From Cafeteria roenbergensis (lineage: Eukaryota; Sar; Bigyra; Bicosoecida; Cafeteriaceae): a stretch of 64,000 bases of DNA. The notes beneath the pieces were generated by a model. The model was not told the DNA's origin. It made no database searches and saw nothing but the letters and a program-made list of their open reading frames with translations. Location of the stretch: the NCBI GenBank assembly GCA_008330645.1, contig VLTN01000091.1, forward strand, positions 18,547 through 82,546, given 5' to 3'. The translations under genes and the position numbers were made by a program. Of this stretch, positions 391 through 46,878 are shown piece after piece (position 1 is the stretch's first letter; each line of letters starts with the position of its first letter).

Positions 391-3300
391 TCAGTGTCTC
401 CACTTTACCAGGCGTTCACGCCGGTGCCAGCGTTGGCACTGCTCGGACTGCGCGATTATGGTTCTGCATCGTTCGTCAAACAGCCGCCAAGACGGAGCAC
501 TCCCATCCTGCAGCTCAGTGGCTCGCAAGCAGCGCATGGAACGTCGTACTGTCGGTGCGTTGTGCGAAGTGAATATGTCGAAGGAGACTTGGATGGCATG
601 GAAGAGAGGGGCAATGCAGGGTGCCAGGAATGCGTGGCTGCTCGCCAAGCATGAAAAATTGCTCAGTGAGCGTGAACTTGGAGACTCTGCCCTGAAGGGG
701 TGGCTGACTTGATGAGTCAACGAAAACAACAAGGCAAGGTACGCAAGCCTACAGCGGGCTAAGCATGGCGCAAGGCTCACGTCAGCTCTTCCCTCCACGA
801 AGGCGCCACGGTCCAGCAGCAGCTTCACGGTGTCCGCTTTGCCTGCCTTTGCCGCAGCTGTCAGCGCCGTGTCGCCGTCCTGCTAAAACACCGACCATGC
901 TCGCAACGGCGCCCCATCGCGCTCCCAGTCAGCGCCGCTTCCCACTCCAGCTCGGACACCGCCCCGCTCCGCAGCGATCGGACGCTCATCACGGACTGCG
1001 GCCCGCCGGCGAGGCCCGAGCACGGACCGGTGCGCAGCAGTCCCGTCTCCAGACTCACGCGGCTCTTCGCCTCCAGGTCGGCGCCACGGTCCAGCAGCAG
1101 CTTCACGGTGTCCGTTTCGCCTTCCTCTGCCGCCATGATCAGCGCCGTCTCGCCGGCCTGCGAAGACACCGACCATGCTCGCAACGGCGCCCCATCGCGC
1201 TCCCAGTCAGCGCCGCTTCTCACTCCAGCCCGGACACCACCCTGCTCCGCAGCGATCGGACGCTCATCACGGACTGCGGCCCGCCGGCGAGGCCCGAGCA
1301 CGGACCGGTGCGCAGCAGTCCCGTCTCCAGACTCACGCGGCTCTTCGCCTCCAGGTCGGCGCCACGGTCCAGCAGCAGCTTCACGGTGTCCGTTGCTCTT
1401 GCCCCGACCGCCACGATCAGCGCCGTCTCGCCGTCCTGCGAAGACACCGACCATGCTCGCAACGGCGCCCCATCGCGCTCCCAGTCAGCGCCGCTTCCCA
1501 CTCCAGCTCGGACACCGCCCCGCTCCGCAGCGATCGGACGCTCATCACGGACTGCGGCCCGCCGGCGAGGCCCGGGCACGGACCGGTGCGCAGCAGTCCC
1601 GTCTCCAGACTCACGCGGCTCTTCGCCTCCAGGTCGGCGCCACGGTCCAGCAGCAGCTTCACGGTTTCCGTTTCGCCTTCCTCTGCCGCCATGATCAGCG
1701 CCGTCTCGCCGTCCTGCGAAGACACCGACCATGCTCGCAACGGCGCCCCATCGCGCTCCCAGTCAGCGCCGCTTCTCACTCCAGCTCGGACACCGCCCCG
1801 CTCCGCAGCGATCGGACGCTCATCACGGACTGCGGCCCGCCGGCGAGGCCCGAGCACGGACCGGTGCGCAGCAGTCCCGTCTCCAGACTCACGCGGCTCT
1901 TCGCCTCCAGGTCGGCGCCACGGTCCAGCAGCAGCTTCACGGTGTGCGTTGCTCTTGCCCTGATCATCAAGATCAGCGCCGTCTCGCCGTCCTGCGAAGA
2001 CACCGACCATGCTCGCAACGGCGCCTCATCGCGCTCCCAGTCAGCGCCGCTTCCCACTCCAGCTCGGACACCGCCCCGCTCCGCGGCGATCGGACGGTCA
2101 TCACGGACTGCGGCCCGCCGGCGAGGCCCGAGCACGGACCGGTGCGCAGCAGTCCCGTCTCCAGACTCACGCGGCTCTTCGCCTCCAGGTCGGCGCCACG
2201 GTCCAGCAGCAGCTTCACGGTGTCCGTTGCTCTTGCCCTGATCATCAAGATCAGCGCCGTCTCGCCGTCCTGCGAAGACACCGACCATGCTCGCAACGGC
2301 GCCCCATCGCGCTCCCAGTCAGCGCCGCTTCCCACTCCAGCTCGGACACCGCCCCGCTCCGCAGCGATCGGACGCTCATCACGGACTGCGGCCCGCCGGC
2401 GAGGCCCGAGCACGGACCGGTGCGCAGCAGTCCCGTCTCCAGACTCACGCGGCTCTTCGCCTCCAGGTCGGCGCCACGGTCCAGCAGCAGCTTCACGGTG
2501 TCCGTTTCGCCTGCCCTGATCATCATGATCAGCGCCGTCTCGCCGTCCTGCGAAGACACCGACCATGCTCGCAACGGCGCCCCATCGCGCTCCCAGTCAG
2601 CGCCGCTTCCCACTCCAGCTCGGACACCGCCCCGCTCCGCAGCGATCGGACGCTCATCACGGACTGCGGCCCGCCGGCGAGGCCCGAGCACGGACCGGTG
2701 CGCAGCAGTCCCGTCTCCAGACTCACGCGGCTCTTCGCCTCCAGGTCGGCGCCACGGTCCAGCAGCAGCTTCACGGTTTCCGTTTCGCCTGCCCCGACCG
2801 CCATGATCAGCGCCGTCTCGCCGTCCTGCGAAGACACCGACCATGCTCGCAACGGCGCCCCATCGCGCTCCCAGTCAGCGCCGCTTCCCACTCCAGCTCG
2901 GACACCGCCCCGCTCCGCAGCGATCGGACGCTCATCACGGACTGCGGCCCGCCGGCGAGGCCCGAGCACGGACCGGTGCGCAGCAGTCCCGTCTCCAGAC
3001 TCACGCGGCTCTTCGCCTCCAGGTCGGCGCCACGGTCCAGCAGCAGCTTCACGTTTCCGTTGCTCTGCCCTGACCGCCATGATCAGCGCCGTCTCGCCGT
3101 CCTGCGAAGACACCGACCATGCTCGCAACGGCGCCCCATCGCGCTCCCAGTCAGCGCCGCTTCCCACTCCAGCTCGGACACCGCCCCGCTCCGCAGCGAT
3201 CGGACGCTCATCACGGACTGCGGCCCGCCGGCGAGGCCCGAGCACGGACCGGTGCGCAGCAGTCCCGTCTCCAGACTCACGCGGCTCTTCGCCTCCAGGT

Positions 3301-6300
3301 CGGCGCCACGGTCCAGCAGCAGCTTTACCGTGTCCGTGTGTCCAGCCTTGACCGCCAGGATCAGCGCCGTCTCGCCGTCCTGCGAAGACACCGACCATGC
3401 TCGCAACGGCGCCCCATCGCGCTCCCAGTCAGCGCCGCTTCCCACTCCAGCTCGGACACCGCCCCGCTCCGCAGCGATCGGACGCTCATCACGGACTGCG
3501 GCCCGCCGGCGAGGCCCGAGCACGGACCGGTGCGCAGCAGTCCCGTCTCCAGACTCACGCGGCTCTTCGCCTCCAGGTCGGCGCCACGGTCCAGCAGCAG
3601 GTTCACGGTGTCCGTTTCGCCTTCCCCGACCGCCATGATCAGCGCCGTCTCGCCGTCCTGCGAAGACACCGACCATGCTCGCAACGGCGCCCCATCGCGC
3701 TCCCAGTCAGCGCCGCTTCCCACTCCAGCTCGGACACCGCCCCGCTCCGCAGCGATCGGACGCTCATCACGGACTGCGGCCCGCCGGCGAGGCCCGAGCA
3801 CGGACCGGTGCGCAGCAGTCCCGTCTCCAGACTCACGCGGCTCTTCGCCTCCAGGTCGGCGCCACGGTCCAGCAGCAGCTTCACGGTTTCCGTTTCGCCT
3901 GCCCTGATCATCAAGATCAGCGCCGTCTCGCCGTCCTGCGAAGACACCGACCACGCTCGCAACGGCGCCCCATCGCGCTCCCCGTCAGCGCCGCTTCTCA
4001 CTCCAGCTCGGACACCACCCCGCTCCGCAGCGATCGGACGCTCATCACGGACTGCGGCCCGCCGGCGAGGCCCGAGCACGGACCGGTGCGCAGCAGTCCC
4101 GTCTCCAGACTCACGCGGCTCTTCGCCTCCAGGTCGGCGCCACGGTCCAGCAGCAGCTTCACGGTGTCCGTTTCGCCTGCCCTGATCATCAAGATCAGCG
4201 CCGTCTCGCCGTCCTGCGAAGACACCGACCATGCTCGCAACGGCGCCCCATCGCGCTCCCAGTCAGCGCCACTTCCCACTCCAGCTCGGACACCGCCCCG
4301 CTCCGCAGCGATCGGACGCTCATCACGGACTGCGGCCCGCCGGCGAGGCCCGAGCACGGACCGGTGCGCAGCAGTCCCGTCTCCAGACTCACGCGGCTCT
4401 TCGCCTCCAGGTCGGCGCCACGGTCCAGCAGCAGGTTCACGGTGTCCGTTGCTCTTGCCCTGATCATCATGATCAGCGCCGTCTCGCCGGCCTGCGAAGA
4501 CACCGACCATGCTCGCAACGGCGCCCCACCGCGCTCCCAGTCAGCGCCGCTTCCCACTCCAGCTCGGACACCGCCCCGCTCCGCAGCGATCGGACGCTCA
4601 TCACGGACTGCGGCCCGCCGGCGAGGCCCGAGCACGGACCGGTGCGCAGCAGTCCCGTCTCCAGACTCACGCGGCTCTTCGCCTCCAGGTCGGCGCCACG
4701 GTCCAGCAGCAGCTTTACCGTGTCCGTGTGGCCAGCCTTGACCGCTGCTGTCAGCGCCGTGTCGCCAAACTGCGACTCCCAACAACGTGCTCGCATCGTC
4801 GCTCCATTGCACGCCTCCCCAAGAACAAACCGTTGCCGCCTTCCTGGCTGGCCCAAGGCACCAGCCCGCCATGACACGGTATGGCTGTCATGTCGACCCA
4901 AGGCCCACCCGTGACGGCATATCCCAACCGATTCGCAGAAGCGCCGTCTCCAGACTCACGCGGCTCTTCGCCTCCAGGTCGGCGCCACGGTCCAGCAGCA
5001 GCTTCACGGTGTCCGTTTCGCCTTCCCCGACCGCCATGATCAGCGCCGTGTCACAGACCTGCGAAGACACCGACCATGCTTGCAACGGCGCCCCATCGCG
5101 CTCCCAGTCAGCGCCGCTTCTCACTCCAGCTCGGACACCACCCCGCTCCGCAGCGATCGGACGCTCATCACGGACTGCGGCCCGCCGGCGAGGCCCGAGC
5201 ACGGACCGGTGCGCAGCAGTCCCGTCTCCAGACTCACGCGGCTCTTCGCCTCCAGGTCGGCGCCACGGTCCAGCAGCAGGTTCACGGTTTCCGTTTCGCC
5301 TGCCCTGACCGCCACGATCAGCGCCGTCTCGCCGGCCTGCGAAGACACCGACCATGCTCGCAACGGCGCCCCATCGCGCTCCCAGTCAGCGCCGCTTCTC
5401 ACTCCAGCTCGGACACCGCCCCGCTCCGCAGCGATCGGACGGTCATCACGGACTGCGGCCCGCCGGCGAGGCCCGAGCACGGACCGGTGCGCAGCAGTCC
5501 CGTCTCCAGACTCACGCGGCTCTTCGCCTCCAGGTCGGCGCCACGGTCCAGCAGCAGCTTCACGGTGTGCGTTGCTCTTGCCCTGACCGTCGTGATCAGC
5601 GCCGTCTCGCCGGCCTGCGAAGACACCGACCATGCTCGCAACGGCGCCCCATCGCGCTCCCAGTCAGCGCCGCTTCCCACTCCAGCTCGGACACCACCCC
5701 GCTCCGCAGCGATCGGACGCTCATCACGGACTGCGGCCCGCCGGCGAGGCCCGAGCACGGACCGGTGCGCAGCAGTCCCGTCTCCAGACTCACGCGGCTC
5801 TTCGCCTCCAGGTCGGCGCCACGGTCCAGCAGCAGCTTCACGGTTTCCGCTTCGCCTGCTTTGACCGCTGCGACCAGCGCCGTCTCGCCGTCCTGCGAAG
5901 ACACCGACCATGCTCGCAACGGCGCCCCATCGCGCTCCCCGTCAGCGCCGCTTCTCACTCCAGCTCGGACACCACCTCGCTCCGCAGCGATCGGACGCTC
6001 ATCACGGACTGCGGCCCGCCGGCGAGGCCCGAGCACGGACCGGTGCGCAGCAGTCCCGTCTCCAGACTCACGCGGCTCTTCGCCTCCAGGTCGGCGCCAC
6101 GGTCCAGCAGCAGCTTCACGGTGTCCGTTTCGCCTGCCCTGATCATCATGATCAGCGCCGCGTCGCCGGCCTGCGAAGACACCGACCATGCACGCAACGG
6201 CGCCTCATCGCGCTCCCCGTCAGCGCCGCTTCTCACTCCAGCTCGGACACCACCCCGCTCCGCAGCGATCGGACGCTCATCACGGACTGCGGCCCGCCGG

Positions 6301-7431
6301 CGAGGCCCGAGCACGGACCGGTGCGCAGCAGTCCCGTCTCCAGACTCACGCGGCTCTTCGCCTCCAGGTCGGCGCCACGGTCCAGCAGCAGCTTTACCGT
6401 GTCCGTGTGGCCAGCCTTGACCGCTGCTGTCAGCGCCGTGTCGCCAAACTGCGACTCCCAACAACGTGCTCGCATCGTCGCTCCATTGCACGCCTCCCCA
6501 AGAACAAACCGTTGCCGCCTTCCTGGCTGGCCCAAGGCACCAGCCCGCCATGACACGGTATGGCTGTCATGTCGACCCAAGGCCCACCCGTGACGGCATG
6601 TCCCATCCGATTCGCAGAAGCGCCGTCTCCAGACTCACGCCATTGATCGCGTTCAGGTCGGCTTCCCGGTCCACCAGGAGCTCCACCATGTCCGTGTGTC
6701 CTGCTCTGGCCATCATGATCAGCGCCGTGTCGCTAACCTGCGAAGATACCGACCATGCATGCATTGTCGCTCCATCACACGCCTCCCAGACTTTCATGCG
6801 CTGCCGGCTCCCTCGGCGCCTCGCGAAGGACCCCCGCCGTGTCCTGAGCTGCCCCGCAATCGCGGCTTGCGCCCCCGGCAGCGCACCCCCGGACACGGTC
6901 CGCCGCGCAGCGGCACCGTCTCCAGGCTCACGCGGCTCCTCGCCTCCAAGTTGGCGCCACGGTCCACAAGCAGCTTCAACAAGTCTTTGTGGCCCGATTT
7001 CGCCGCCATGATCAGCGCCGTCTCGCCATACTGCGATCCAACGTACCCTCGTGACACTGGACTCGTCACCACGTAGAACGCGTCACGTCGTGCAGCCAGC
7101 GTTACTTCCCACGCCGGCCCCGCTACCAGCGCGCCTTGCAAGAATTGAGAGGCAAGTGCAGAACGGCGCCAGTCCATGTCGCCTGGCGCGGTCCGTCGCG
7201 CAGCGGGCAATGCCGCGGGTTGGGCACTTTTGCCTTGCGTTCTCGCGTCCCCTGCTCTCGACGACGGGCGGGCAGCAGGCCAGCAATCCCTGAGCTCACC
7301 TTCAGAACATCACTCCAGTTGACTCGTGCGCCCGCGTCGAGGAGCCTGCGGGCTTCAGCAGTGTTCCCGTCTCTTGCTGCCTCCCAGAGAGCTAGTGCCT
7401 GTGCGCCGGCGCTCGCCGGAGTGAGGGCCAT
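391..7431 (-). CDS. Ankyrin-repeat protein, one repeat per exon (25 exons)
   Basis: Predicted binding scaffold made almost only of ankyrin repeats, about 841 aa; partner unknown. Exon 1 is 7300-7431 (ATG at 7431; 44 codons starting MALTPASAG, containing a capping half-repeat). Internal exons are 99 nt, 33 codons, phase 0: 6932-7030, 6639-6737, 6350-6448, then low ends at 6072, 5794, 5516, 5238, 4960, 4671, 4393, 4115, 3837, 3559, 3281, 3005, 2727, 2449, 2171, 1893, 1615, 1337, 1059 and 781. The last exon, 391-507, encodes 38 residues and a TGA. Donors are GTGAGT or GTGAGC and acceptors end in GCAG. Each repeat follows the ankyrin pattern (xGxTAL, VKLLLDRGADLEA). The exon at 3005-3101 is 97 nt and would shift the frame. 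The terminal exon is supported by a matching exon in the paralog at 45091-46878. Splicing is inferred from motifs and constant phase. Confidence 0.85.
3005..3101 (-). other. Frameshifted ankyrin exon (97 nt)
   Basis: This unit is 2 nt short of the 99-nt exon length. Compared with neighbouring exons, about one base is missing in the codon 11-13 region and one more about ten bases on, just before the conserved VKLLLDRGADLEA stretch. The flanking donor (GTGAGT) and acceptor (TTCGCAG) are intact. Inclusion would shift everything downstream out of frame, while skipping would preserve it. It could be a decayed exon, a regulated poison exon or a sequencing or assembly error. Confidence 0.75.
4770..4959 (-). 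repeat. Variant 190-nt intron, copy A
   Basis: This intron differs from the standard 179-nt intron over most of its length but keeps the GTGAGT donor and CGCAG acceptor. It is nearly identical to the intron at 6449-6638, and in both places the exon downstream in transcription reads FGDTALTAAVKAGHTDTVK. The two copies are 1679 bp apart, which equals one 289-bp unit plus five 278-bp units. That points to duplication of a multi-unit block. Confidence 0.85.
6449..6638 (-). repeat. Variant 190-nt intron, copy B
   Basis: Near-identical partner of the intron at 4770-4959. It sits between the divergent exon at 6639-6737 and the first exon of the homogeneous array at 6350-6448, so it may be the original from which copy A was duplicated into the array. 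Confidence 0.85.
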
Positions 7432-9616: not shown

Positions 9617-12600
9617 TCATGAAACCTGAGCCTGAACCTCGGCTCTGGCCAGTGCCCGCGCGACTTCCATGACGCGCGAGTCCATCTCGAAGTCAAGCGC
9701 GTCAGGCAGACCCTGAGCGTCTGCGGTTCGCCGCGCCCAAACTCGGCGACTCCTGCGCACAGGAGTTGCGCTCATTGGGGCATCAGCATGAGTCCGCACC
9801 ACATGCAGTGCTGTGAAGCTTCCCCCCAACGAGTCTGACTCAGTCTCCGGGCACACCTGCGCCTCCGAAGCCACTGCGCGGTTGTTGGCGCGAGAACTTT
9901 CCGGACTCGGAGGCGGGTGGCCCGCAAAAGCGACCGCACGCTCGCCAGGCGTTGACCAGTCGCGAGCCAGAACATACAAGCCTGCCGCCAAGAGAGCAAT
10001 CGAAGACACGAAGGCGTTCGCAGCCGTCGGCGCCGGGCCCTGGCCAGCGACACGTGGCTCGCCCAGGGATGCCCGCTGTGGCCAGCGGTTCAGCTCCAGC
10101 TGCGCATCTGCTGACGTGTCGCAGCCCGCGGGAGCCTGCGCGGAATCAGCTTCCAAGCCAGTGGGCTTGGGCGAGCCGTCCACCTCGTGCTGGGCATCGG
10201 GCAGCGCGGGTACCTTCGCGCTGCGCTGGGGCTGGACCTCGACTGCGTTCGCTGCCTGGGCCAGAGGAGCCAGGCACCACGCGGTGGCGTTGCCGTCGCG
10301 AGCCACGGGCTCTGCCTCGTGGGGCACCCTGCTCAGGTGACTGGGATGCAGGCTGCCGGCTGGCAGCAGGCCCGCAGAGTCGACCGTCCGTGGCTGCCCT
10401 CCGGTCGAAGGCCAATCCGCAACACCCGACAGCGTCTCGCGACCGCTGCCGGACGCTTCAGCTGCTTGTGAGCCTGTCTTCATCGCTCCTGCAATGCCCC
10501 GTTGCTGCGGCAGAGTCTCGGACTTCTGACGATGAAGCACCTCACCCCAGTGAGGAGCCTTGCAAACAGACGCAACGTGCTCCTGTGTCGTCGCAGAATG
10601 CGCGGCCACTGCCACTTCTTGCGCCCGTTCATCCAATGGGCTCTCGGTGGATGCCACCGCCACATGCGGCGCTGTCAGCCCCGCAAAGCGAGGCACGGAG
10701 TGGGCCAAGAGCGCGAGGAGCAGAGCAACCAGCACAGCGCTCAGGCTGCCCCGCAGCCACCGCACCCCCTCGGCCGACTCGGTAGCGGCGGGGCACGGCA
10801 CTCCCCAGGGGGAGCGCTCGCGAGAGGCTCCAGCTTCTGGTTCTTGAGCCTGCTTCGGCGTTGGCTCCTCGCTGCTGAGCATGAGGGACGTGCCGCGGCA
10901 AACAACAGACGGCCGCTGGTGCCGGACGTCGGGGTCTTCATTGCCTGCCCTGGCCCCCGTAGATGCAGCCTCAGCCACGGCGGCCTCCAGCGGCGACTCC
11001 TCCGCACCGGCAGCCTCAGCCACGGCGGCCTCCGTCGGCGACTCCTCCACACCGGCAGCCCCAGCAGCGGCGGCCTCCGTCGGCGACTCCTCCGCACCGG
11101 CGGCCCCAGCAGCGGCGGCCTCAGTCGGCGACTCCTCCGCACCGGCGGCCCCAGCAGCGGCGGCCTCCAGCGGCGACTCCTCCGCACCAGCGGCCCCAGC
11201 AGCGGCGGCCTCCAGCGGCGACTCCTCCGCACCGGCGGCCCCAGCAGCGGCGGCGGCGACTCCTCCGCACCGGCGGCCCCAGCAGCGGCGACTCCTCCGC
11301 ACCGGCGGCCCCAGCAGCGGCGGCCTCCGTCGGCGACTCCTCCGCACCGGCGGCCCCAGCAGCGGCGGCCTCCAGCGGCGACTCCTCCGCACCGGCGGCC
11401 CCAGCAGCGGCGGCCTCCAGCGGTGACTCCTCCGCACCGGCGGCCCCAGCAGCAGCGGCCTCCAGCGGCGACTCCTCCGCACCAGCGGCCCCAGCAGCGG
11501 CGGCCTCCAGCGGCGACTCCTCCGCACGAGCAACAGTAGCGGCCACGGTGTCACCGCTGCGGGCTCCCACCGGCACACAATCTGCACTCAGGGCCGGCAC
11601 AGAGCTTGCACCGAGACGCTGCTCTTGGCTGCACCCTGCATCGACTCCGGAGATTTCCTGCCCTGGGGCCGCCCCGCCTGCCTTTGGGGCAGGCCCGTCG
11701 TTGAGTTGGGCTGCGTCGGCGGCTGTCTGTGGGCATGCCTGCCGCTCACCCGCCGCGCAGGTTGCGCGCTTGCCAAGCCCGTGGTGCAGAGGAGAGCCAG
11801 ACTCATCCTGCGTGAACCCAAGGGTTCTTGCTGTGGGGCTCGATTTCCTTGCTTCGTCTGCCTGGCCATGCGGCGTCGTCGTGCGTTGCAGCTGCCGTTG
11901 CTGCTGCTGCTCCTGCTGCTGCTTGGGCCGAGCTGGTGTGGCCTGGAACAAGGCGGTTTGCACTGACACACCTTGCTGCGCTGCCCACTCGCGGCGAGCG
12001 ATTGCTGCCGCCTTGGCAACTGACCTGGAGAGAGCTGGGGTGAACCCGGTGCGCTTGGGCGAGGGGGGCGACGGCCAAGCAAGGTCCGCAGTGTCGGCCG
12101 GAGACGGAGCCTGTGGCTCAGCCTCTTTTGTTGAAGCCTCAGGCTTGCTTGCACCCTGCTGGCTTCCCGCCTTGGGTACGGCTGCACGGCCATGCTGTTC
12201 CGGTTCAGATCCGGCCGGCCGAGGCATGCCGCCTCCAGCCTCAAGCGTGCCAGCCGTTTCCCCCTCGCGAGGGCTGGACTGCGAGGGCCGAACCGAGCTC
12301 TGACTCGCGCGGGCTGTCGGGAGCGGGTGGTATGGGCTCTTGCTTGCCGCATGCGGAGTGGAGTGCGCCTTGAGGGTGCGGGATCGTGGGAGCGCCCGCG
12401 ACGCGCTTGGCAAGCCAAGCCGAGCCGATGTCGCGCCCGCTCGGGTTCGGCTCATCAACACCGGCAGCTGACTGACTGACCCATGGGTGGGGGACTGTAG
12501 GAGCCGAAGAGGTCTCCCGTTGGGGTCAAACGCAAGGGAAGACCCAGCGGGCGTTGCCAGGGGGGTCAAAGCTGAAACGGTGGTTGCCAACCTGCTTGGC

Positions 12601-19953: not shown

Positions 19954-22900
19954 ATGGGGACTTGCGCGTCGGCAGAGGCAGTGCACCCGTCCAAGGTAAG
20001 GCGCGCCGGTCGAGATTGACAAGCCAACGCGCCGCACCAGACCTTGACAGGCCTGCATCCCCGCCCCGGCACGGTGGGGGGGTGGGGGGGGGCGCAGCAG
20101 CGGGCCATCTGCAAAAGGCCGCGCGGGGCACCCACCCACAGCAGGCGCGTGGGCGCCCTGCTTGTCTTCCGCTTGCCCGGCTGGCGCTGGCGCCCAAGCG
20201 GGCCATTGTCAGCCGACTGCGCGCGCCAGCCAGACTGGCGCGGCGTCGGGAGCGGCACCGAGCGACCCCCCCTGGGTGATGCACGGGGCGCCTGGGCTGG
20301 CCGCCGCGCCACGCACCATCGCGCCGGGCTGTCATGAGTGTGACACAACGGGTCTGCTTGTTTGCGTCGCTGCGCGCCTGCCGCCCTGTGTTCCGCAGCT
20401 CGACGTTCACCCAGAGCAGGGCCGGCCCGCGAGCAGCAGCTCCAACGACAAGCCAGCCGCTGAGGCGCACGCGCCGGCCCCCAAGCAGCAGCCCGGGGCC
20501 TCGGCGCCAGAGACCGCGGCAGAGGGGTCAGGCGGCAACCGCGATTCTCGATCGCGAAGCGTCCAGTCGGACACCAAGGCGGCGGCCAGGCAGCCTGGGA
20601 CTGCCGCGGCGCCAAAGGGCGCCAAGACTGTGGACGATGCCGTGGCGGGCGCGGTGCTGGAGTCAGCGGACCGCGAGGCGGTTGTGCAGGGCATTCTTGC
20701 CGGGGACTTTGACGGCGTCATGACCAGGGACAAGCTCCGCGGGCTCCGGCTCAAGCCCGAGGTGGCCAAGTCGGCGCGCGTGGACACGGACGGCTCTGAC
20801 GACGAAGGCGTCATGCCGTCGGTCAAGACTGCGGGCGCCTCGACCGGCGTCCCGGCTTCCGACTGGCTGGCCGACGACCACGTGCCGGTGGACGACCTGC
20901 GGCGGGAGTTCGGCGAGTCGGGCGTGCTCCAGACGGCCAACCTCGACGACCACTTCGAGCACCGCGGCCTGCGGGGCCTCAAGCTCAAGGCGCCAGTGCC
21001 GGCCCCCGGAAACGCGGGGCGGCGGTCGTCGGCGCACGCCTCCAGCGGCGGCGGCGCGGGGCTGGCAGAGGACCAGGCCAAGGACTGGACGCTCGAGGAG
21101 GGCCCGCCGGACAAGGACTTCCCGGAGTCCCGCGTGCTCCAGACGGCCAACCTCGACGACCACTTCGAGCACCGCGGCGTGAGGGGCCTCAAGCTAAGGG
21201 GCGCCCCTCGGGCTCCCCGCTCCTCGGCCAACAGGAAGAGGGGCGACCGCCCCGGACCCAGCCGCCGCGAGGACGTCGGCGCCGGCAAGGACGATGTGGC
21301 GGTGCCGTCGAGCGACCTCACAGCAGGCGTCTCCCCCGTGTCAGGGGGCTTGCAGGGCGACACCAAGGCGTTCGGTGACGACACAGCCCCGAGCCGCCCT
21401 GGCGCGGAAGCCAGCGGCGAGGGCGCCCCGGCGGCTGCGGAGCCGGGGTCCGGCACCGCTGTGACAGGCAGCCAGGGGGCGCCCGCGGGCAGCACGCAGC
21501 CCTCTGCCGTCACGGGGGGCGCGTCGGCGTCCTCGCTGGGCTCGAGCAGGGTGGCCGGCCCGTCGCGGCCCTCCCGTGCCGGGGCGCTGCCGATGGCCCA
21601 GCCAGCGTCCCAAGGGCGCCGCGCCTCGGAGAGCAGCGGCGCGAGCGCGGACATTGATGACCTAAGCAGCGACGACGACACCGACGGCAGCGCCGTGATG
21701 GACGACTGGCTGGCTGAGCCGGACAAGCCGGAGCAGATCGGGGACGTGTCTGCAGAGTCTTCCGACGACGACGACGATGACGACGACGACGTGGTGGACG
21801 ACTGGCTGAAGCCAGCGTCGGCCAGAGGCCGCGAGGGCCCCCCTGCGCCGCTGCGGATCTCAAAGGGCAAAGCCGTCGACTCGGCTGCGCCGTCGCCGGC
21901 GTCCGGGGCAACCTCGGCGTCGGGCATGTTCGAGGCGCAAGGCGACATCAGCGGCGGCACCGTGGTGGAGCGGGGCATCGAGGCCAAGGGCCGCGCTCTG
22001 TCCAAGTCCGACTCTGCCACCTCGCGGAGTCAGGGGTCCGCCTCCGCGGCGCCCAACTACGCGGACTTTGACGAGGAGTGGGAGCACCTCAAGACGCTCA
22101 AGCTGGTGTTCCAGCGGGCGGGGCTGGAGCGGCGGCAGCAGCAGCGCTTCCTCGAGGCGCTGGTGGCGGAGCGGTTCAGCGAGGGCGAGTACATCGTGGC
22201 GCAGGGGGACGTTGGCGACAAGTTCTACATCATCACCGAGGGCGAGGTGATGGTGACCCGCACGCTGGCCGAGGCGGACGCCGAAAAGGTTCCCAAGTCG
22301 AAGCTCCGTCGCTCGCCCGCAGGCGCCTCGGAGATGCGCATCACGTACCTGTACGACGGGCACTTCTTCGGGGAAACGTCGCTGTTCAAGGAGGAGCCTC
22401 GCAACGCCAACGTTATTGTGTCGAGCAACGAGGCCGCGGTGATGTCCATGGCCAAGTCCAAGTTCAAGCCCTTCCTGGACGAAGACGCCAAGTTCCGCGA
22501 GCTCATCGAGCAGCTCATCCTGCGCAAGGAGGAGGCGGCGCGCAAGCGGGACGAGTACCTGAGCAAGCAGTCGGCGGAGGCGCAGGCCTCGCTGCTGACG
22601 GAGCGCGAGCACGTCAAGGTGAGCAAGGTGCGCGTCAAGCGCAAGACGGACGACGGCAAGGTAATCCTCAACGACTACGTCCTGCAGACCAAGGTGGGCC
22701 AGGGCAGCTACGGCACCGTGTGGCTGGCCATGGCGGTGACGGACGCGAAAAAGTACGCCATCAAGATGGTCAACCGCGAGAAGCTGCGCCGAAAGGGCCG
22801 CTTTGCGCGCGGCGCCGGGGAGGGCGACGAGGAGCTGCTGAACGAGGTGGCAGCCATGAAGAAGCTCTCCCACCCCAACCTGGTCAAGCTGTACGAGGTC

Positions 22901-25900
22901 ATCGACGAGCCCCAGCGTGGCAAGTTCTACATGGTGCAGGAGTACATGGCGCTCGGGGCCATCATGGACGAGGTCGAGTACTGCGACCCGCTGGACCCCG
23001 AGGTGGCCAGGGCATTCTTCCGGCAGGTGGTGGCGGGCCTGGCCTACATGCACTTCCAGGGCGTCATCCACCGGGACCTCAAGCCCAGCAACTGCCTTGT
23101 GGGCGAGGGCGGCGTGTGCAAGATCGCCGACTTTGGCACGGTGGCCATCGTCGGGGACGAGCCCCAGGAGGGCGGCAAGCCGGCCGACTGGCTCACGGGC
23201 GTGCGCGGGACGGCCGCCTTCCAGCCGCCCGAGGTGTTCCTGCTGGAGCCGGGGGGCGGCTACGGAGGCCGCGCCGTGGACATGTGGGCCCTGGGCGCGA
23301 CGCTCCACAACATGGTGGTGGGCTCCCCGCCCTTCATGGGCAAGAACGAGTTCGAGCTGGTGGAGAAGCTCAAGCGAGGCGAGTTCCGCGTGGCCATCGA
23401 GGTGCAGCTGGACCCGCACCTCAAGAACCTCCTCCAGGGCCTCCTCGAGGTGGACGTCGACCGCCGCTTCACCATGGAGCAGGTGGCGGAGCACGACTGG
23501 GTCACGGCAGAGGGGACGGAGCCGCTGCCCTTCCGCAACTTCCGCAAGGTGGCCCTCAAGGACACGCCCTCGACCTCGCCGCGCTCGTCGGCGGCCGACG
23601 GCCAGGCCTTCCCCCTGCCTGAAGGCAGCCCCAGCGTGCTGGGCAACGTAAGCTCGGAGAACGCCGCGCTTAGCCACCGCAGCAAGATGCGGCGCAGAGA
23701 CGCGCGGGACAAGGCCCTGTCCAGGGCGGGCTCCGAGGTCGGGTCGAAGGATGCGGTTCACGGCAGCCAGGGCGGCAGCGAGTCAAGCCGCCCCGCCGTG
23801 GTCGGGGGCGGCCCCGCGCGGCCCATGGTCGGCGCAGCTGTGGCCGCCGCGGTCAGCGCCTTTGCCGACGGCCAGTCCAGCTGGTCGCAGCGCTCGCCGT
23901 CGTGGGTGGCCGCCTCCGAGGCGCTGGACGAGGGCGCCGCCGACGCCGCCGTCAGGCGCGCATCGGCCATGCATACCACCCCCACCCCGACGGCGGAGGC
24001 CCTCAAGAAGGCGCGGGCCGGCCTGCTGAGCAAGGAGACGCTGGCCGAGCAGGTGGAGACTCGCCAGCGCGTCCTGCTGGCCGGCGTCAAGGCCAAGGCG
24101 CTCCTTCGCGCGATGCGCAACCGGCAGCTGCGGCTGATCAAGGAGCACAGCACGCTCACGGACAAGGACCGCGACATCCTGCTCGACCAGCAGAGGTTCG
24201 CCATCTCCAGCACGCGCGCCGACATTGAGGTCATGGCCGTTCGCATGGACGCCAAGGGGCGCTTCTCGGACGAGGCGCCCCGCTCCAGCCGCTACGGCGC
24301 GCCCGGCGCCATGAAGTCGATGCACGTGATGCGCGCGCCGGGCCGGGCCGCCGCCGACGTCACCAAGCCGCCGCGCCACTCCCAGGACCTGGGCATCGGC
24401 GCTGCGGCTGAGGCAGAGCGCCGCGCGCTCAGGCTGTCTGAGGGCACAACTGACGCGACGGACCACTCCCCCGGCCGCTCGGGGCCCAGCCACGTCGGCG
24501 GAGCAGGCGAGCTCTCCGGGTTCGACCACATGGTGGACGACCTGGTGTCCGAGCAGGGCACCACCTCGCGGAAGAACTCGAGCAGCCGCGCAGGGTCCTT
24601 CCGGGGCATGCACCCGCCCGGGCACGCCTCCTCGCCGAGCCGCAGCGACGACACGGCCGGCCACTCCACGCTCTCGCGGCTCGAGTCGGAGCGCCGCATC
24701 GGCAGCCTGCAGCGCAAGAAGGACTTCGTCATGGTCACCTCCACGGTGGAGGGCGACGAGGACGGCGGCAAGGTGCACAAGAAGGTCATCTTCCGGGCCA
24801 AGGACCCGTCCCTCTCGCTCTTCTCGGGGCGGGCGGGGACGGCGGCAAGCCTCAGCAAGCGGCGGTCCAAGGCGGGCTCCGGCGTGGCGAGCGGCAGGCA
24901 CTCCAGCACGAGGCTGCCCGGGTCCGTCTTGGGCAACGCGAGCGACACAGGCGACGACAGCGACGACGATGTGGGCGACGGGGACGAGCAGGTGCAGCCG
25001 CTGCACGAGAACCTGGACCTCGACTCGTACAAGCGGCGCGCGCGCCCCCCGGGCCACGCTGCCGGTCCCAGCGTGGAGGAGGGGGAGGAGGACGAGGAGT
25101 CGGGGGGCTCCTCCACGCACTCCAGCCTGATGGAGGAGGAGGAGGACGACGACGACGACGAGAGCGACTACGGCGACGTTGCGACCGTGGACGACATGAC
25201 CACGTCCGTGGTGGGCGGCAACCTCAAGAGCATGTTCGACGAGATCACGGCGCAGCCCAAGCAGGACGACTCCGACCTCGAGGACCTCACGCCCGAGGAG
25301 GTGAGCGCCTTCCAGCGCCAGATGAACGCGGGCCTCCTCCCTGCCACGACGGCGGGGCCGGGCGACGTCAAGCCCTCGGGCTCCGACAGCGCTCGCGACC
25401 GCGCGCCCCGCCTGTCGGGCGAGAGCAAGCCGTCCCCCGAGCAGGCGAAGCGGTTCGCGCCGCAGGCGACGCCCGCCTCCGTTGACCTCACTGCGGAGTC
25501 CGGGGCCGGCGGCGCGTCCGCAGATGCCGCCGCGACCGAGGCCGGGTCGGGGCCGGGGTCCGCAAGGAGCGGCGCCTTGCGATCGGGCTCGTCGTCGCCC
25601 CGTGCTGCGGGGGCGTCGCCTCGCGAGGCCGGCACTTCTGCCGGGGCCTCCGCTGCCGCCGCGGCCGCAGCCAGCTCGCATGCCGCGGGGGCTTTGGCCT
25701 CGGTTCACTCGCTGGCAGTGTCGGCGTCGCCCGCCCCCACCCCCACGGGCCCGTCGCTGTCTCACCAGTCGCTCCAGCCCTGGGAGCTGCCCCAGTCCCG
25801 CGATCCCGAGATGGAGGCCAAGATGGCCGCGCTTGCCGGCCGCAAGTCGCCGCTGCGGCACGCGGCCGGGGGCTGCTTCCCCTCCATGGGGATCATGTTT

Positions 25901-26902
25901 GCGGTGGCGGACGCGGTGGGCCGGCGCAGCGCCATGGAGGACAGGCACATCGCGGTGCCGAACCTGACTGCGCAGCTGGCAGCGGACGTCGCAGCCGGGG
26001 AGCTCGGCGTCGGCGGCGACGCGGAGGCTGCCTCCAAGGCGCTGGAGGCCCGCAGCGGCGCGCAGACGGCCATGTTTGGCGTGTTCGACGGCCACAACGG
26101 CAGCGGGGCCTCCGAGTTCCTCGCCCAGCGCATGCCCGGCGCGCTGGCAATGCACCCCGAGTTCGGGACCGACCTGCAGGCCGCCATGCGCGACGCGGCC
26201 GACCGCGTGGACAACGAGTACATGGACTACGCGCAGGAGAACCAGGTCTACGACGGCGCGACGGGGGTCATGGTCGCGCTGCGCATGCCCCGGCTGGAGC
26301 CGGGGGCGACGGGGCTGCAAAAGGCGGAGCTGCTGTGCGCCAACGTGGGGGACTCCCGCGCGGTTCTCAGCAAGCGCGGCGAGGCGATCGAGCTGAGCAG
26401 CGACCACAAGGTCACGCGGGAGGACGAGCTCGAGCGGATCACGCGCGCCGGGGGGTGGGTCACCAAGGACCGGCTCTGCGGCGTGATTGCCGTCAGCCGC
26501 GCGTTTGGCGACATTGAGCACAAGCGCCTCAAGACGGAGTGCTGGGGCATCGACTTCACGGGGGACACGCTCATCTCCGAGCCGGAGTTCCAGTCCTGCC
26601 GCGTGTCCCTCCCCGCGGTGGCGCCGGGCGGGGCAGCGGGCCGCCGGCCGTCTGGGGCGGGCGACGAGTTCATCATCGTGGCCTGCGACGGCGTGTGGGA
26701 CGTGATGACCAGCCAGCAGGCGGTCAACTTTGTGCGGAGGCGCATTGCCGCGCATGGCGACGCCGGCCGAGCTGTGTTCGACCTGATCCAGAAGGCGCTG
26801 GACCTCAACACAATCGACAACTGCACTGCGTGCCTGGTGCTCTTCGCCCAGGAGCGCGACCCGGCGGCGGGCTCCCCACGCAGCAGCGTCGGTCGCCCCT
26901 GA
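19954..26902 (+). CDS. Lipid-anchored CNB-protein kinase-PP2C fusion
   Basis: Predicted 2181-aa signalling enzyme joining a cyclic-nucleotide sensor, a Ser/Thr kinase and an opposing phosphatase. Exon 1 (19954-19995) encodes MGTCASAEAVHPSK: Gly2 with Ser6 fits N-myristoylation and Cys4 fits palmitoylation. GTAAGG at 19996 joins an acceptor ending at 20398, in phase 0, to exon 2 (20399-26902). A single CNB domain (about 575-715) keeps FGE and PRNA of the phosphate-binding cassette. The kinase (about 769-1050) has GQGSYGTV, AIK, HRDLKPSN, DFG and PPE, and looks CaMKK/SNF1-like. After a long acidic linker with a helical patch (about 1200-1300), the PP2C (about 1845-2170) has MEDRH, FDGHNG, GDSRAVL and CDGVWDV. 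All catalytic residues appear intact. Plant relatives, as I recall, have the order PP2C-CNB-kinase. Confidence 0.93.
20915..21210 (+). repeat. Duplicated QTANLDDHFEHRGxRGLKL module
   Basis: Inside the disordered N-terminus of the kinase-phosphatase gene, the 19-residue motif QTANLDDHFEHRGLRGLKL occurs twice (about 20931-20987 and 21141-21197). A weaker relative (RDKLRGLRLK) lies near 20730. DWLA/DWLK motifs recur nearby. The duplicated bases are almost identical, so the copy is recent or strongly constrained. It may be a docking motif. Confidence 0.8.
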
Positions 26903-27397: not shown

Positions 27398-30300
27398 TCA
27401 GTTGGAGGCCGCCTTGGCATCAGCAGCGGCCTGCGCGTCGGTGGCGGGGCTTGCCGCAGCCGCAGGCAGGTCCTGTGCCGGCGTGGGGGCAGCCGACACA
27501 GCTGAAACGGCTCCCGGGGACGCTGCTGAGGCCGCACTCGCCGCCGCGGGGCTGTCGGCCGGGGCGGCCGCGGCGGCGCCAGCGCCCGCGGCGGCACCAG
27601 CGCCCGCGGCGGCGGCTGCAGTTGGGGGCGCGGGGAGCTGCTTGGCGTCGCCAGCCGCCGCGGCCGGCGCTGGGTCCGCTGCGAGGGGCTCTGGGTCCGC
27701 GATGAAGCCCATTTGCTTGACACGTTTCATTCCCCGCTGGCGGGAAATGATGGCGGCGTCCCGGAGGAACATCAGCTCCTCCTCGTCCTCTGCGTAGCCG
27801 TAGTCGGGCTTGTTCGGGTCCGACGTTGGCTCTGCAGCGCTGCGGCCAAAGTTGCCGCCGGGGCCCGCCTCGGCCCCCACGGCGTCTTGCACGCCTCCCT
27901 TCTCGATGCCGCGCTCCTCGTCCTTGTCGCCCAGCACGGAGTGGTCGTCCGGGCCGTCAGGGCGGGACTCGATGGCCGCAAGCACCGCCTGCCGAATGCA
28001 CGAGCGAACGCACAGCAGCACGGTGGGCCCGCAGAGGCAGACGAAGACGATGGCAAAGATGATCAGGTTGGCTGGCCACGGGATGATGTTGTACATGTCC
28101 ACCAGCACCTGGATGGCTGGCCCGCCGAGCGCGAAGACCAGGATGATGATGAGCAAGCAGAAGCAAATGAGGCACTGCTGGAACAGCCGCGGGCCGCAGA
28201 TGGCGTTGCCGAGGTAGAAGGGGTTGAGCGAGAAGCGAAGGCGGCCCGCGGGCGGCGGCAGGATGGGGTTCATGTTCGGCTGCGAGCGGCCGCGGCCGGC
28301 CGGCACCGCCTGCACCAGCTCCTCGGGGACGAGCTCCGCGGACACGAGGAGCTCGCCCCGCTTCGTTGGGAAGTACTTGCCGTTGCGGTAGTTGCACGTG
28401 CACGGCAGCCACTTGGCGTGCTCGGCCTTGGGATGCTGCGGGAAGCCCATGAGCGACTTGACGGTGCTGATCGTCTCCTTCGCCTCGTTGGCCTTCTCCT
28501 CGTCGTCCGCCAGCGTGACGGCCATGGTGTCCAGCTCCGTCTGCTGGCGGTCCGGGTCGCGGTCCTGCAGCAGGCGCTCTCGCTCCTCCCGCGTGACCAG
28601 GTCCAGGGCGATGTTCTCGGCGTCCTCGGTGGGCGACCGCTTGATCCGGCCGCGCGCCTCCGCCCGCTGCTTCCGCCGCTTCTTCTCTGCCTTGCGCCGC
28701 GCCTTTTCCATGGCCTTGACCATGCGCTCGTGGCGGCGCTTCGCGGCCACCTCGTCGTCCACGGCCTCGTGCGGGTCGCCCGCGCTGCCCTCGTCCCAGT
28801 CGTCGTCGCCGGGGCCGATGGCCCCGCCTGGGGCCGCCATGGCGGGCCGCGGGCTGGTGAGGGCTGCGGCGGTGGACTTGAGCTTGGCCGCCTTGCTCCA
28901 GCGCTTGTCGGCAGCGGCCATCGCCGACACTGCCGCGTCGTCGGCCTGAGGCACCGGGGCCGAGTCCTCGCCGTACACGGAGGGGGCCTTGCCGTCGGAG
29001 CGGACCGTGACAGACCCTTGGCGCGAGGACTGCGAGCGCGAGCCGCGGCTGCGCGACCCGGCCACGCTGGCTGCAGCAGCGCCGCCGCCAACGCCCGCCG
29101 CTGCGCTGTGGCTGTCGCTGTGGCTGTGGCTGTGGCCGTGGCCCTGCGCGGCGTCCTTGTCCGAGTCAGAGCCAGTTCCGGAGTCGGAGTCAGAGTCGGA
29201 GTCCGAGGATGACCCGCCCGCCGCCGCTGCGGCAGCAGCAGTCGCGCCCGCCGCCGTGGAGGGGTCCGGGTCGACCTCGTCGGGGTCCACGCCGCCGTTC
29301 TTGTGCCGCCTGGCGTCGTCGAAGATGCGGTACACGGAGTCCTGGAACTGCGCTCGCTTGAACAGGGCGGACAGGTCCACCTGCACCTCGGCGATGCAGT
29401 CGTTCCACTTGAGGATGTCCCTGTCCCAGAGCTGCACGTTGAGGTAGGCGAACTTGTAGGGCAGCTCGATGTCCCAGAGGAAGCGCCAGTTGAAGGAGGC
29501 CTTGCCTCCCTTGGCGCGCCAGTGGGTGTCCGTCTCCATGGGCCGCATGCCCTCGAGCCAGACGCGGGCGTACATGTCGTTCATGTTGGTCAGCTTGTCG
29601 TTGGTGGCCACGCCGCGGGCCCGCCACACCACCACGCGGAACTGGAACTTGCGGGGGGGCGGCGGCGTGATGTCGATCATGGGGTACTTGGCGGCGTCGC
29701 CGGGCCGCAGGATGTCCACCCACATGCGCAGCTGCCCGCAGGAGCCGAAGAAGGTGGGCGAGAAGAGCGTGCGGTCCTCCACCGGCCGCGTGGCGAGGCG
29801 CTCGTCCGTCTGCTGCGCCAGGCCGAAGGACTGCCAGCGCTTGTCGAACCAGCGGTCCTCGAGGTCCACGATGGTCTCCCCGATGAAGTCGTCGAACGTC
29901 ACGTAGTCGTAGTCCCACGCGGCGATGTGCAGCCGGGACGGGCCGGGCAGGTTGGCCTTGATCTCGAGGCAGCGATAGAACTGCGGCGAGAGGGTCTTGG
30001 GGATGTACCGCTTGCGGTCGGACACCTTTTCGTCCCCCAGAGTCAGGACCAAATAGGGGTCGCCAGAGTTGCCGTCGGTCGGGATGAAGTCGCGCCCGTC
30101 CATGACGTAGACGCGCACGAGGTACTGCTCCGGGCGCAGCAGCGACTCGAGCGCGACGGGCGGCGGCGTCTTGCGCGGGTCCCTGATGATGCGGATGATA
30201 CCCTTGAACACGCCAACGCGCCGGTTGGACGAGCGCAGGCGAAACCCGAAGATGCTGCCGCGCGGCAGGGCGGAGCCGCGGCGCACGTCGTACGTCTCGA

Positions 30301-45090: not shown

Positions 45091-46878
45091 CTACGCACGC
45101 CAAAGCGTGAGAAGTCGCCGCCGATACCACCTCTGGAATGGCTCTGGGTGGGCAAGCAGTCGGCGGCAGGCGTCATCTGTGCACATGGCCAAGGCAGTGG
45201 GACCAGCCTGCGCAGGGGTTGGCGTTGGGATCGGCGGCGCACCGTGCGATCTTTTCGGCCGCCAGGACCGCACGCGCGCGGCTTCTCAGCATCGTTGCGG
45301 GGTTAAGGGCCGCAGGTTGGCAAAAGTTGACTCCTCGGCGGCGTTTGCGAGGCGATCGCTAGCGCAGAATGCACTCCATTGCAGCCGGCCAGCCAAAGCA
45401 ACAATCCACTCGACGGCCAGCGCCACCTCAAATGCAAGCATGGGCAAAATTGTACCCTGCCAGCTGCGTTCATACGAACCGGCTCTCTCACCTTGCAAGT
45501 TGGCTCCGGCTCGGCACCCCAGTCGAGGAGTAACCGCACCACTTCAATGTTTCCAGCGTTGGCAGCCGTGTGAAGAACGCTTGCCCCGTCCTGCGTTGAA
45601 CAACGAACAGAGGGACAAGGGCCCGTACTGCCTGTCTCTCGCACGCACGTGTCGAGTCCCAGTGCCGCACGCAGCTGCCAGACTGCTCTCACTGGAGAAG
45701 CACCACGGGAGTGCTACTGCCGCCTTGAGCAAGGCAAGATCGCGAACTCACCGTTGCCCGCGCGTTTGGGTCCCCGCCGCGGACCAGCAGCTCGTGGGCC
45801 ACGCTCGCGTGACCGAGCTTGGCAGCCCAGTGAAGTGCTGTCCAGCCGTTCTGCGAGTTTCAAGCCGCCGCCACAGTCCAGCAACACGCGATTGGTTCAC
45901 GGATGCAACACCAGAACCGGCGGTCGTGTGGATGACGCAGCGCACCCACGACCCAGGCGCGCGTGTGCTTCAGCTGCATGCCAGCGAGGGCCTCGACCGT
46001 GGCGACCTCGAGCTTGCCGACTGACGTCGGCCTTGAAGTGAGGGTCCGCGCCGGAGTCCAGCAGCAGCAGAATCATGTCCAGCCGCCCTCGCACAGCGGC
46101 CCTGTGGAGCGGCACCCACCCAGCCTGCAGCGGCTATTGAGGCCGAGTCCGCCGTGCATCAGCGCAACGCTGTCACTGGCCCCAGGCCCCCCTTGTCAAC
46201 AACGACTGTGCCGGCGCGGCAGCCCGTGAGAACCACCACCGACAAGCGACCCGCCAAAGCCACGCAGCCGCAGTCGCGACCGCGGCAAGCGAACCCACTT
46301 GTGCCTTGGCATTCAAGACTGCGCCGCGTTCCAACAGCAGTCGGGAGAGTGCCACATGTCCGTTTTCAACCGCCCCGAGAAGAGCCGTCCAGCCGTTCTG
46401 CGCCAATAGATCAGACAGCAAACGCGATGCAGAGGCGCGGCGCTGCTGAACAGGGCTCGGCGGGAGCCGCAGCGCCCGTCGCGCACAGGGTGGGCCCAGC
46501 AACCAGCCAGGCTTTGCGCAGCAACAGGCCGCGGACCGGCTTACACTTGCCTTGGCTGCCAGGTCTGCGCCGTTGTCCAAAAGCAGTTGCACCACGTCAA
46601 CATGGCCTTGAGCAGCTGCCGTGTGGAGGGGCGTCCAGCTGTACTGCAGCGACGAAACGCACACCACAACCCAAGTATATCGTTGCCCTCGCCCCCTTTT
46701 CCTCCCTTCCGCGGTGCAGCGCCTCCGGGCCCAGCGCAAGGCACGACGCGCGCACAGCGTTCCTGCACCCAACGGGAGCTCCTGCCGCCAGCAGCCGAGC
46801 GACCACCTCTGCATCGCCCGCCTGGGAGGCCGCGAACAGTTGCCCGCCAGCAGTAGCGCGCGAGGGGCCAGAGCTCAT
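45091..46878 (-). CDS. Ankyrin-repeat protein, one repeat per exon (7 exons)
   Basis: Predicted 244 aa. Exons are 46756-46878 (ATG MSSGPSRATAG), then five 99-nt exons of one ankyrin repeat each (46545-46643, 46299-46397, 46026-46124, 45752-45850, 45492-45590), and a 117-nt terminal exon 45091-45207. All junctions are phase 0. Donors vary (GTGCGC, GTAAGC, GTGGGT, GTCAGT, GTGAGT, GTGAGA). The repeats are close to consensus (WTPLHTAAAQGHVDVVQLLL; WTALHWAAKLGHASVAHELL). The terminal exon has the same length as that of the array gene at 391-7431 and shares its spaced CR...A..E..QRW.RR.....WR pattern. The two are therefore paralogs, and this one, with unrelated introns, resembles the pre-expansion form. 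The exon 1 donor is the least certain. Confidence 0.85.

What the first reader, a model, noticed from the sequence alone, without database searches (positions are those of the whole stretch)
781..6448. Ankyrin gene expanded as exactly one repeat per exon with homogenised introns
Twenty-one consecutive 99-nt exons, each one 33-residue ankyrin repeat in phase 0, are embedded in 278-bp units whose 179-nt introns are almost identical. In ordinary ancient repeats introns diverge faster than exons; here it is the reverse. Because every internal exon is symmetric, any subset can be spliced in frame, so the locus could yield many receptor-like variants by alternative splicing or unequal crossing-over. 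This is the best candidate in the window for an undescribed diversity-generating system. Seen: period, exon length, splice motifs. Inferred: function.
Basis: partly seen in the sequence, partly recalled or inferred. Interest (0 to 1): 0.92.

Follow-up and report, generated by a model that had tools for sequence, protein, structure and literature searches.

The report
Ankyrin exon array with variable patches
A gene in an unidentified GC-rich eukaryote is built from about twenty near-identical exon-plus-intron units, each coding one ankyrin repeat, and nearly all differences sit in the short stretch that codes the probable binding side of the repeat, a pattern that resembles known recognition proteins of fungi and brown algae.

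Summary
On the minus strand, 20 units of about 278 bp plus a last exon each carry one ankyrin repeat in a phase-0, 99-nt exon with GT-AG introns; one exon has 97 nt and one intron 190 nt. The gene reaches exon 1 at 7431. Introns differ by 1.6% and exons by 10.5%, all of it in the first 57 exon bases. Six consecutive introns are identical while four exons between them differ by 3-11 nt. A second ankyrin gene (45492-46643) has the same exon design with ordinary divergence, so the architecture is not special here; the homogenised array is. Best reading: concerted evolution of units, with exon patches kept diverse and partly shuffled, probably for binding. Positive selection is suggested (pN/pS 1.55 and 2.07) but not significant by allele count. 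Variant frequencies speak against fresh hypermutation. Closest known: fungal NLR repeats and brown-algal one-repeat-per-exon genes. Alternative splicing, copy-number change and function are untested; no strain, transcript or close relative could be reached.

The parts
7300..7431 (-). Exon 1: proposed start ATG and N-terminal cap repeat (44 codons), donor GTGAGC
   Evidence: Translation and splice motif; start codon inferred
6932..7030 (-). Exon 2, one diverged ankyrin repeat, 99 nt, phase 0
   Evidence: Pfam Ank on the spliced N-terminal part
6639..6737 (-). Exon 3, one diverged ankyrin repeat, 99 nt, phase 0
6449..6638 (-). 190-nt intron, repeated with 2 differences at 4770-4959
1059..6448 (-). 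Array of 20 exons (19 of 99 nt, 1 of 97 nt) with the 19 introns between them (18 of 179 nt, 1 of 190 nt)
4770..4959 (-). 190-nt intron inside the array; marks a duplicated block (exon-3-like start, 190-nt intron, FGD exon)
   Evidence: block duplication inferred
3005..3101 (-). 97-nt exon; if included unchanged it shifts the frame of the rest of the gene
2270..3836 (-). Six identical consecutive introns (3658-3836, 3380-3558, 3102-3280, 2826-3004, 2548-2726, 2270-2448) with five exons between them
   Evidence: introns 9-14
880..1058 (-). Last 179-nt intron, acceptor TTTAGCAG
781..879 (-). Last ankyrin exon seen; followed by donor-like GTGAGCC, or read-through to a stop at 391-393
   Evidence: end inferred
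45492..46643 (-). Second ankyrin gene (control): five 99-nt phase-0 exons (46545-46643, 46299-46397, 46026-46124, 45752-45850, 45492-45590), introns 147, 174, 175, 161 nt

Best explanation
It is an ankyrin-repeat gene whose single-repeat exon-intron unit expanded in tandem and is kept uniform by recombination between units (unequal exchange and short gene conversion), while the 57-nt exon patch coding the beta-turn, first helix and inter-helix turn is kept diverse and partly shuffled among units, most likely because diverse binding surfaces are favoured. Shown: architecture, homogenised introns and 3' exon halves, site pairs in all four combinations within patches, patch and intron histories that do not match. 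Inferred: conversion as the process, selection for binding diversity, a recognition role, production of the protein.
For: Ankyrin identity: Pfam Ank 3.5e-40 on the spliced 209-aa N-terminal part. Variation: exon nt 1-57 18% (pi 10.43 of 57), exon nt 58-99 0%, intron nt 1-73 0.14%, nt 74-179 2.6%. 18 distinct sequences among 19 exons. 70 of 325 informative site pairs show all four combinations, Rmin 7. Exons 10, 11, 13 and 14 have identical flanking introns yet differ by 3-11 nt in the patch; exons 0 and 6 are identical but their downstream introns differ by 6 nt. Mantel tests of patch against introns: r 0.12, P 0.22 (18 units, downstream) and r 0.15, P 0.17 (17 units, upstream). Single-copy variants: 6 of 34 patch sites, 12 of 17 intron sites, Fisher P 0.0004; P 0.057 without units 0 and 6; P 0.009 without 0, 6 and 11. 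pN/pS over codons 1-19: 0.186/0.120, or 0.174/0.084 without the FGD units. Amino-acid identity of the 19 repeats (80.6%) is lower than DNA identity (89.5%). Control gene of the same exon design with ordinary divergence.
Against: By allele count the synonymous share is what unselected mutation gives: 9 of 37 against 0.251 expected, P 0.54; 4 of 27, P 0.15, without units 0, 6, 11; 2 of 20, P 0.13, without 2 and 5 as well. So positive selection is not demonstrated. Nonsynonymous alleles are not confined to surface positions: 12 in 10 framework codons, 16 in 9 others (framework set from recalled consensus). Linkage within the patch falls only weakly with distance (rho -0.14, P 0.011) and is higher again in the farthest bin (0.26), and the two patch halves are correlated, so the shuffling is partial; recurrent mutation could also make four combinations. 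No signalling domain was found. One exon is out of frame.
Confidence: 0.55

Rival explanations
1. Relaxed constraint after recent duplication: introns and 3' exon halves are homogenised by conversion, while older patch variants survive by chance or because mismatches there block conversion; no selection for diversity.
For: Synonymous share of variant alleles fits neutrality; variable sites spread over codon positions as 12, 8, 14. Horizontal evolution of repeats is often under relaxed selection (PMC5120217, passages).
Against: The frame is kept in 19 of 20 array exons and the splice sites in 20 of 20; patch codons for T, A, L, T, T, V are fixed or changed in 1 of 19 at the protein level. Survival in just the 57 nt coding the concave side is unexplained.
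Confidence: 0.22
2. Targeted mutation: a local error-prone or templated process (template switching in a hairpin, or copying from donor repeats elsewhere) rewrites the patch.
For: Synonymous changes are raised in the patch too; the only length change among the 20 exons falls within one patch; the MMI variant, in 3 of 20 units, is a perfect palindrome with 8-base arms.
Against: Patch variants are mostly shared by several units, not single-copy as fresh mutation would give (P 0.057 in one of three versions). Donor copies elsewhere cannot be sought without the genome.
Confidence: 0.13
3. Assembly artefact: number and order of units, or the out-of-frame exon, come from read mis-joining or polishing.
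For: Repeats of high internal identity were not recovered reliably from short reads, and a 1-nt deletion in one such repeat was judged a misassembly (PMC12222747, passages). The sequencing method behind this window is unknown.
Against: Units carry in-frame, shared, multi-base variants and intact splice sites, which random error does not give. This does not vouch for the unit count.
Confidence: 0.1

Closest known systems
Fungal NLR WD/ANK/TPR repeats with high internal conservation (PMC4986451 and PMC2873952, passages read)
   Same: Near-identical tandem repeats, variable positions on the concave/binding side, recombination and conversion between repeats
   Different: Those proteins carry a NOD domain, none was found here; the 85% identity used there is not reached here by a simple mean (80.6%); strain polymorphism and positive selection were shown there, not here; no repeat-per-exon structure appears in the passages read
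Brown-algal ROCO (LRR) and NB-ARC-TPR genes (PMC11378527: abstract, introduction and passages; Zambounis 2012 not held, known through that paper and recall)
   Same: One repeat per exon in a uniform phase, exon shuffling, diversity at the binding face
   Different: LRR exons of 72 bp in phase 2 with ROC-COR there; ankyrin exons of 99 bp in phase 0 and no partner domain found here; splice variants have data there, none here
Snake three-finger toxin genes, accelerated segment switch in exons (PMC2474615, passages)
   Same: Introns conserved while short exon segments differ strongly
   Different: Separate gene copies, not units of one gene; unrelated protein
Second ankyrin gene of the same window, 45492-46643
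   Same: Five 99-nt phase-0 single-repeat exons
   Different: Exons 36-56% different, introns no more alike than shuffled controls

Membership tests
Ankyrin repeat proteins | 33-residue repeats matching the ankyrin profile | tested here: met
   Pfam PF00023 E 3.5e-40 on a 209-aa spliced N-terminal part
High-internal-conservation recognition repeats (fungal NLR type) | Repeats over 85% identical over at least 100 aa | tested here: not met
   Mean amino-acid identity of 19 repeats 80.6%; 34 of 171 pairs reach 85%. A simple mean, not that paper's own method
High-internal-conservation recognition repeats (fungal NLR type) | Positive selection at binding-face sites | tested here: inconclusive
   pN/pS 1.55 and 2.07; allele-count tests P 0.09 to 0.54
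High-internal-conservation recognition repeats (fungal NLR type) | NOD/NACHT/NB-ARC domain in the same protein | tested here: not met
   No such match in the spliced N-terminal 209 aa or the tail 391-879, nor in nine ORFs between 7544 and 20470. A missed exon cannot be excluded
High-internal-conservation recognition repeats (fungal NLR type) | Repeat-number polymorphism between strains | not testable with these tools
   No own genome and no second strain
Brown-algal exon-shuffled receptors | One repeat per exon, uniform phase | tested here: met
   20 of the 21 exons of the claimed span are 99 nt, phase 0
Brown-algal exon-shuffled receptors | LRR or TPR repeats with ROC-COR or NB-ARC | tested here: not met
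   Ankyrin repeats; no such domain found
Brown-algal exon-shuffled receptors | Alternative splicing of repeat exons | not testable with these tools
   No transcripts
Introner-type introns (recalled) | The same intron sequence in unrelated genes | tested here: inconclusive
   Only the window was searched, with one 179-nt and one 190-nt intron: outside this gene the 179-nt one has one 21-nt match (47673-47693), the 190-nt one none

The most novel reading that the evidence does not exclude
A eukaryotic exon-cassette diversification system: introns and constant 3' exon halves act as uniform recombination arms, so that short conversion tracts reshuffle 57-nt binding patches among some twenty phase-0 ankyrin cassettes, giving new combinations in the germ line, perhaps also in somatic cells or by exon skipping (which would also bypass the out-of-frame cassette).
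Probability: 0.12. Interest if true: 0.85.

Novelty: new variant of a known kind. Interest (0 to 1): 0.5.

Why it matters
Within 5.6 kb a near-neutral yardstick (introns) alternates with coding patches, so homogenisation and diversification can be measured side by side. If strains differ in patch combinations, the fungal and brown-algal pattern of fast-changing recognition repeats would extend to ankyrin exons of another eukaryote.

Tried and rejected
Own-genome search: none held. Phage records, distant blastn of 781-1400: no match. Exact 27-nt exon/intron junction pattern: 0 matches in viral contigs and in genome contigs. Protein searches: viral contigs 15 candidate stretches and 0 relatives, twice; genome contigs 5 of 183 candidates, in five bacterial records at 30-38% identity, not pursued. 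Rfam: 0 at gathering score; ARAGORN: 0. Introner idea: disfavoured, introns matched only within the gene but for a 21-nt hit (the 179-nt query's array hits were filtered from the listing). Selection on surface positions only: not borne out. DGR-like adenine-directed change: judged only by eye on the codon table. Palindrome reading of the MMI variant: a lead, since exon 3 already has a similar ATGATG stretch (sequence). PMC2805694 was searched for introns and exons (passages): 'intron' occurs 0 times, no use. Organism: not identified. Structure prediction was not tried, since a spliced protein is not a letter-for-letter reading of the window.

Full report
What is there. On the minus strand, 776-6445 is a 278-bp tandem array of 20.4 copies. 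Each copy holds one exon that encodes a 33-residue ankyrin repeat in phase 0, followed by a GT-AG intron, as a rule 99 and 179 nt. With the last exon (781-879) this makes the 21 exons of the finding. Two exceptions: exon 3005-3101 has 97 nt, and the intron 4770-4959 is a 190-nt intron of another type, 2 nt different from that at 6449-6638. Upstream lie exon 3 (6639-6737), exon 2 (6932-7030) and exon 1 (7300-7431, start codon inferred). The end of the gene is uncertain: a donor-like GTGAGCC follows the last exon, or the frame reads to a stop at 391-393. The spliced N-terminal 209 aa match Pfam Ank at 3.5e-40 and solved ankyrins and designed ankyrins.

Where the variation lies. Leaving out the 97-nt exon and the 190-nt intron, mean pairwise difference is 10.5% over 19 exons and 1.6% over 19 introns. 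All exon variation is in nt 1-57: 34 of 57 sites vary there and 0 of 42 in the rest, against 17 of 179 in the intron; the 97-nt exon has the same last 42 nt. The first 73 intron bases differ by 0.14%, the remainder by 2.6%. Each unit is thus a uniform frame with one variable patch which, by alignment with the recalled ankyrin consensus, codes the beta-turn, first helix, inter-helix turn and start of helix 2; the rest of the repeat is invariant. The 19 repeats average 80.6% amino-acid identity against 89.5% in DNA.

How the units relate. There are 18 distinct exon sequences among 19. 70 of 325 informative site pairs show all four combinations, with a minimum of 7 recombination intervals in 57 nt (recurrent mutation could inflate this). 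Linkage falls only weakly with distance (rho -0.14, P 0.011; mean r2 0.35 at 1-3 nt, 0.17-0.19 at 4-39 nt, 0.26 beyond), and the two halves of the patch stay correlated (Mantel r 0.40, P 0.008): shuffling is partial. Patch and intron histories do not match: introns 9 to 14 are identical, yet exons 10, 11, 13 and 14 between them differ by 3-11 nt; exons 0 and 6 are identical but their downstream introns differ by 6 nt. Mantel tests of patch against downstream intron (18 units, r 0.12, P 0.22) and upstream intron (17 units, r 0.15, P 0.17) are not significant. Intron difference grows with distance along the array (rho 0.30, P 6e-5), exon-patch difference does not (rho 0.11, P 0.17). Exon 5 begins like exon 3 (VCD, VSD), goes on like the array, and stands before the same 190-nt intron and FGD exon as exon 3 does: I infer a block duplication followed by conversion. 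Variants seen in one unit only make up 6 of 34 patch sites and 12 of 17 intron sites: P 0.0004 with all, 0.057 without units 0 and 6, 0.009 without 0, 6 and 11. This favours kept and shuffled diversity over fresh local mutation.

Selection. pN/pS for codons 1-19 is 0.186/0.120, and 0.174/0.084 without the FGD units. By allele count 9 of 37 changes are synonymous where 25.1% is expected (P 0.54), 4 of 27 without units 0, 6 and 11 (P 0.15). Framework codons vary about as much as others: 12 nonsynonymous alleles in 10 codons against 16 in 9. Positive selection is plausible, not shown.

A control in the same window. A second minus-strand ankyrin gene at 45492-46643 has five exons of exactly 99 nt in phase 0, with introns of 147-175 nt; its exons differ by 36-56% and its introns are no more alike than shuffled sequence. 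One repeat per exon is thus how at least two ankyrin genes of this organism are written; what is special at 781-6448 is the homogenised expansion with variable patches.

The out-of-frame exon. It aligns to exon 18 with two 1-nt losses and three substitutions, or to exon 13 with three losses, one gain and one substitution. Included unchanged, it shifts the frame, which then stays open to the last codon of the model (residue 802). It may be skipped, may spoil the rest of the protein, or may be an assembly slip; PMC12222747 (passages) judged a 1-nt deletion in such a repeat to be a misassembly.

Relation to known systems. In passages read of PMC4986451, fungal NLR ankyrin repeats show high internal conservation, copy-number polymorphism and variable sites on the concave face. 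PMC2873952 (passages) describes chimeric repeats and a likely short conversion in hnwd genes. PMC11378527 (abstract, introduction and passages) describes brown-algal genes with one LRR per exon, exon shuffling and splice variants. PMC2474615 (passages) describes conserved introns with switched exon segments. Nine library searches were answered, not all aimed at ankyrin arrays and all limited to open-licence papers; I noticed no ankyrin array with this combination in their listings, which is weak evidence of absence.

Limits. The organism is unknown; no own genome, strain, transcript or close relative was reached.

Noticed in passing
window 45492-46643, minus: Second ankyrin gene with five 99-nt phase-0 exons and ordinary divergent introns; a first exon near 46870 is possible.
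   Followed up: yes
window 20048-26899, plus: One long open frame holds a cyclic-nucleotide-binding domain, a protein kinase and a PP2C phosphatase.
   Followed up: no
window 27401-35485, minus: Open frame of 2695 codons with five C2 stretches and a FerI match below its cut-off, ferlin-like.
   Followed up: no
window 57373-59367, minus: Class-II DAHP synthase matches in two open frames that are separated by one stop codon; an intron there is likely.
   Followed up: no
window 10965-11527: 45-nt tandem repeat, two abutting rows of 7.1 and 5.8 copies; extensin-like matches below cut-off on both strands.
   Followed up: no
window 6072-6170, 4393-4491 and 2449-2547, minus: The MMI exon variant forms a perfect palindrome of 8-base arms around one base, a possible trace of templated mutation.
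   Followed up: partly
window 765-6420, plus: Overlapping antisense open frames of 262 to 403 codons recur along the array; probably a by-product of composition.
   Followed up: no
window 781-2825, minus: After the 97-nt exon the shifted frame stays open through all eight following exons.
   Followed up: no
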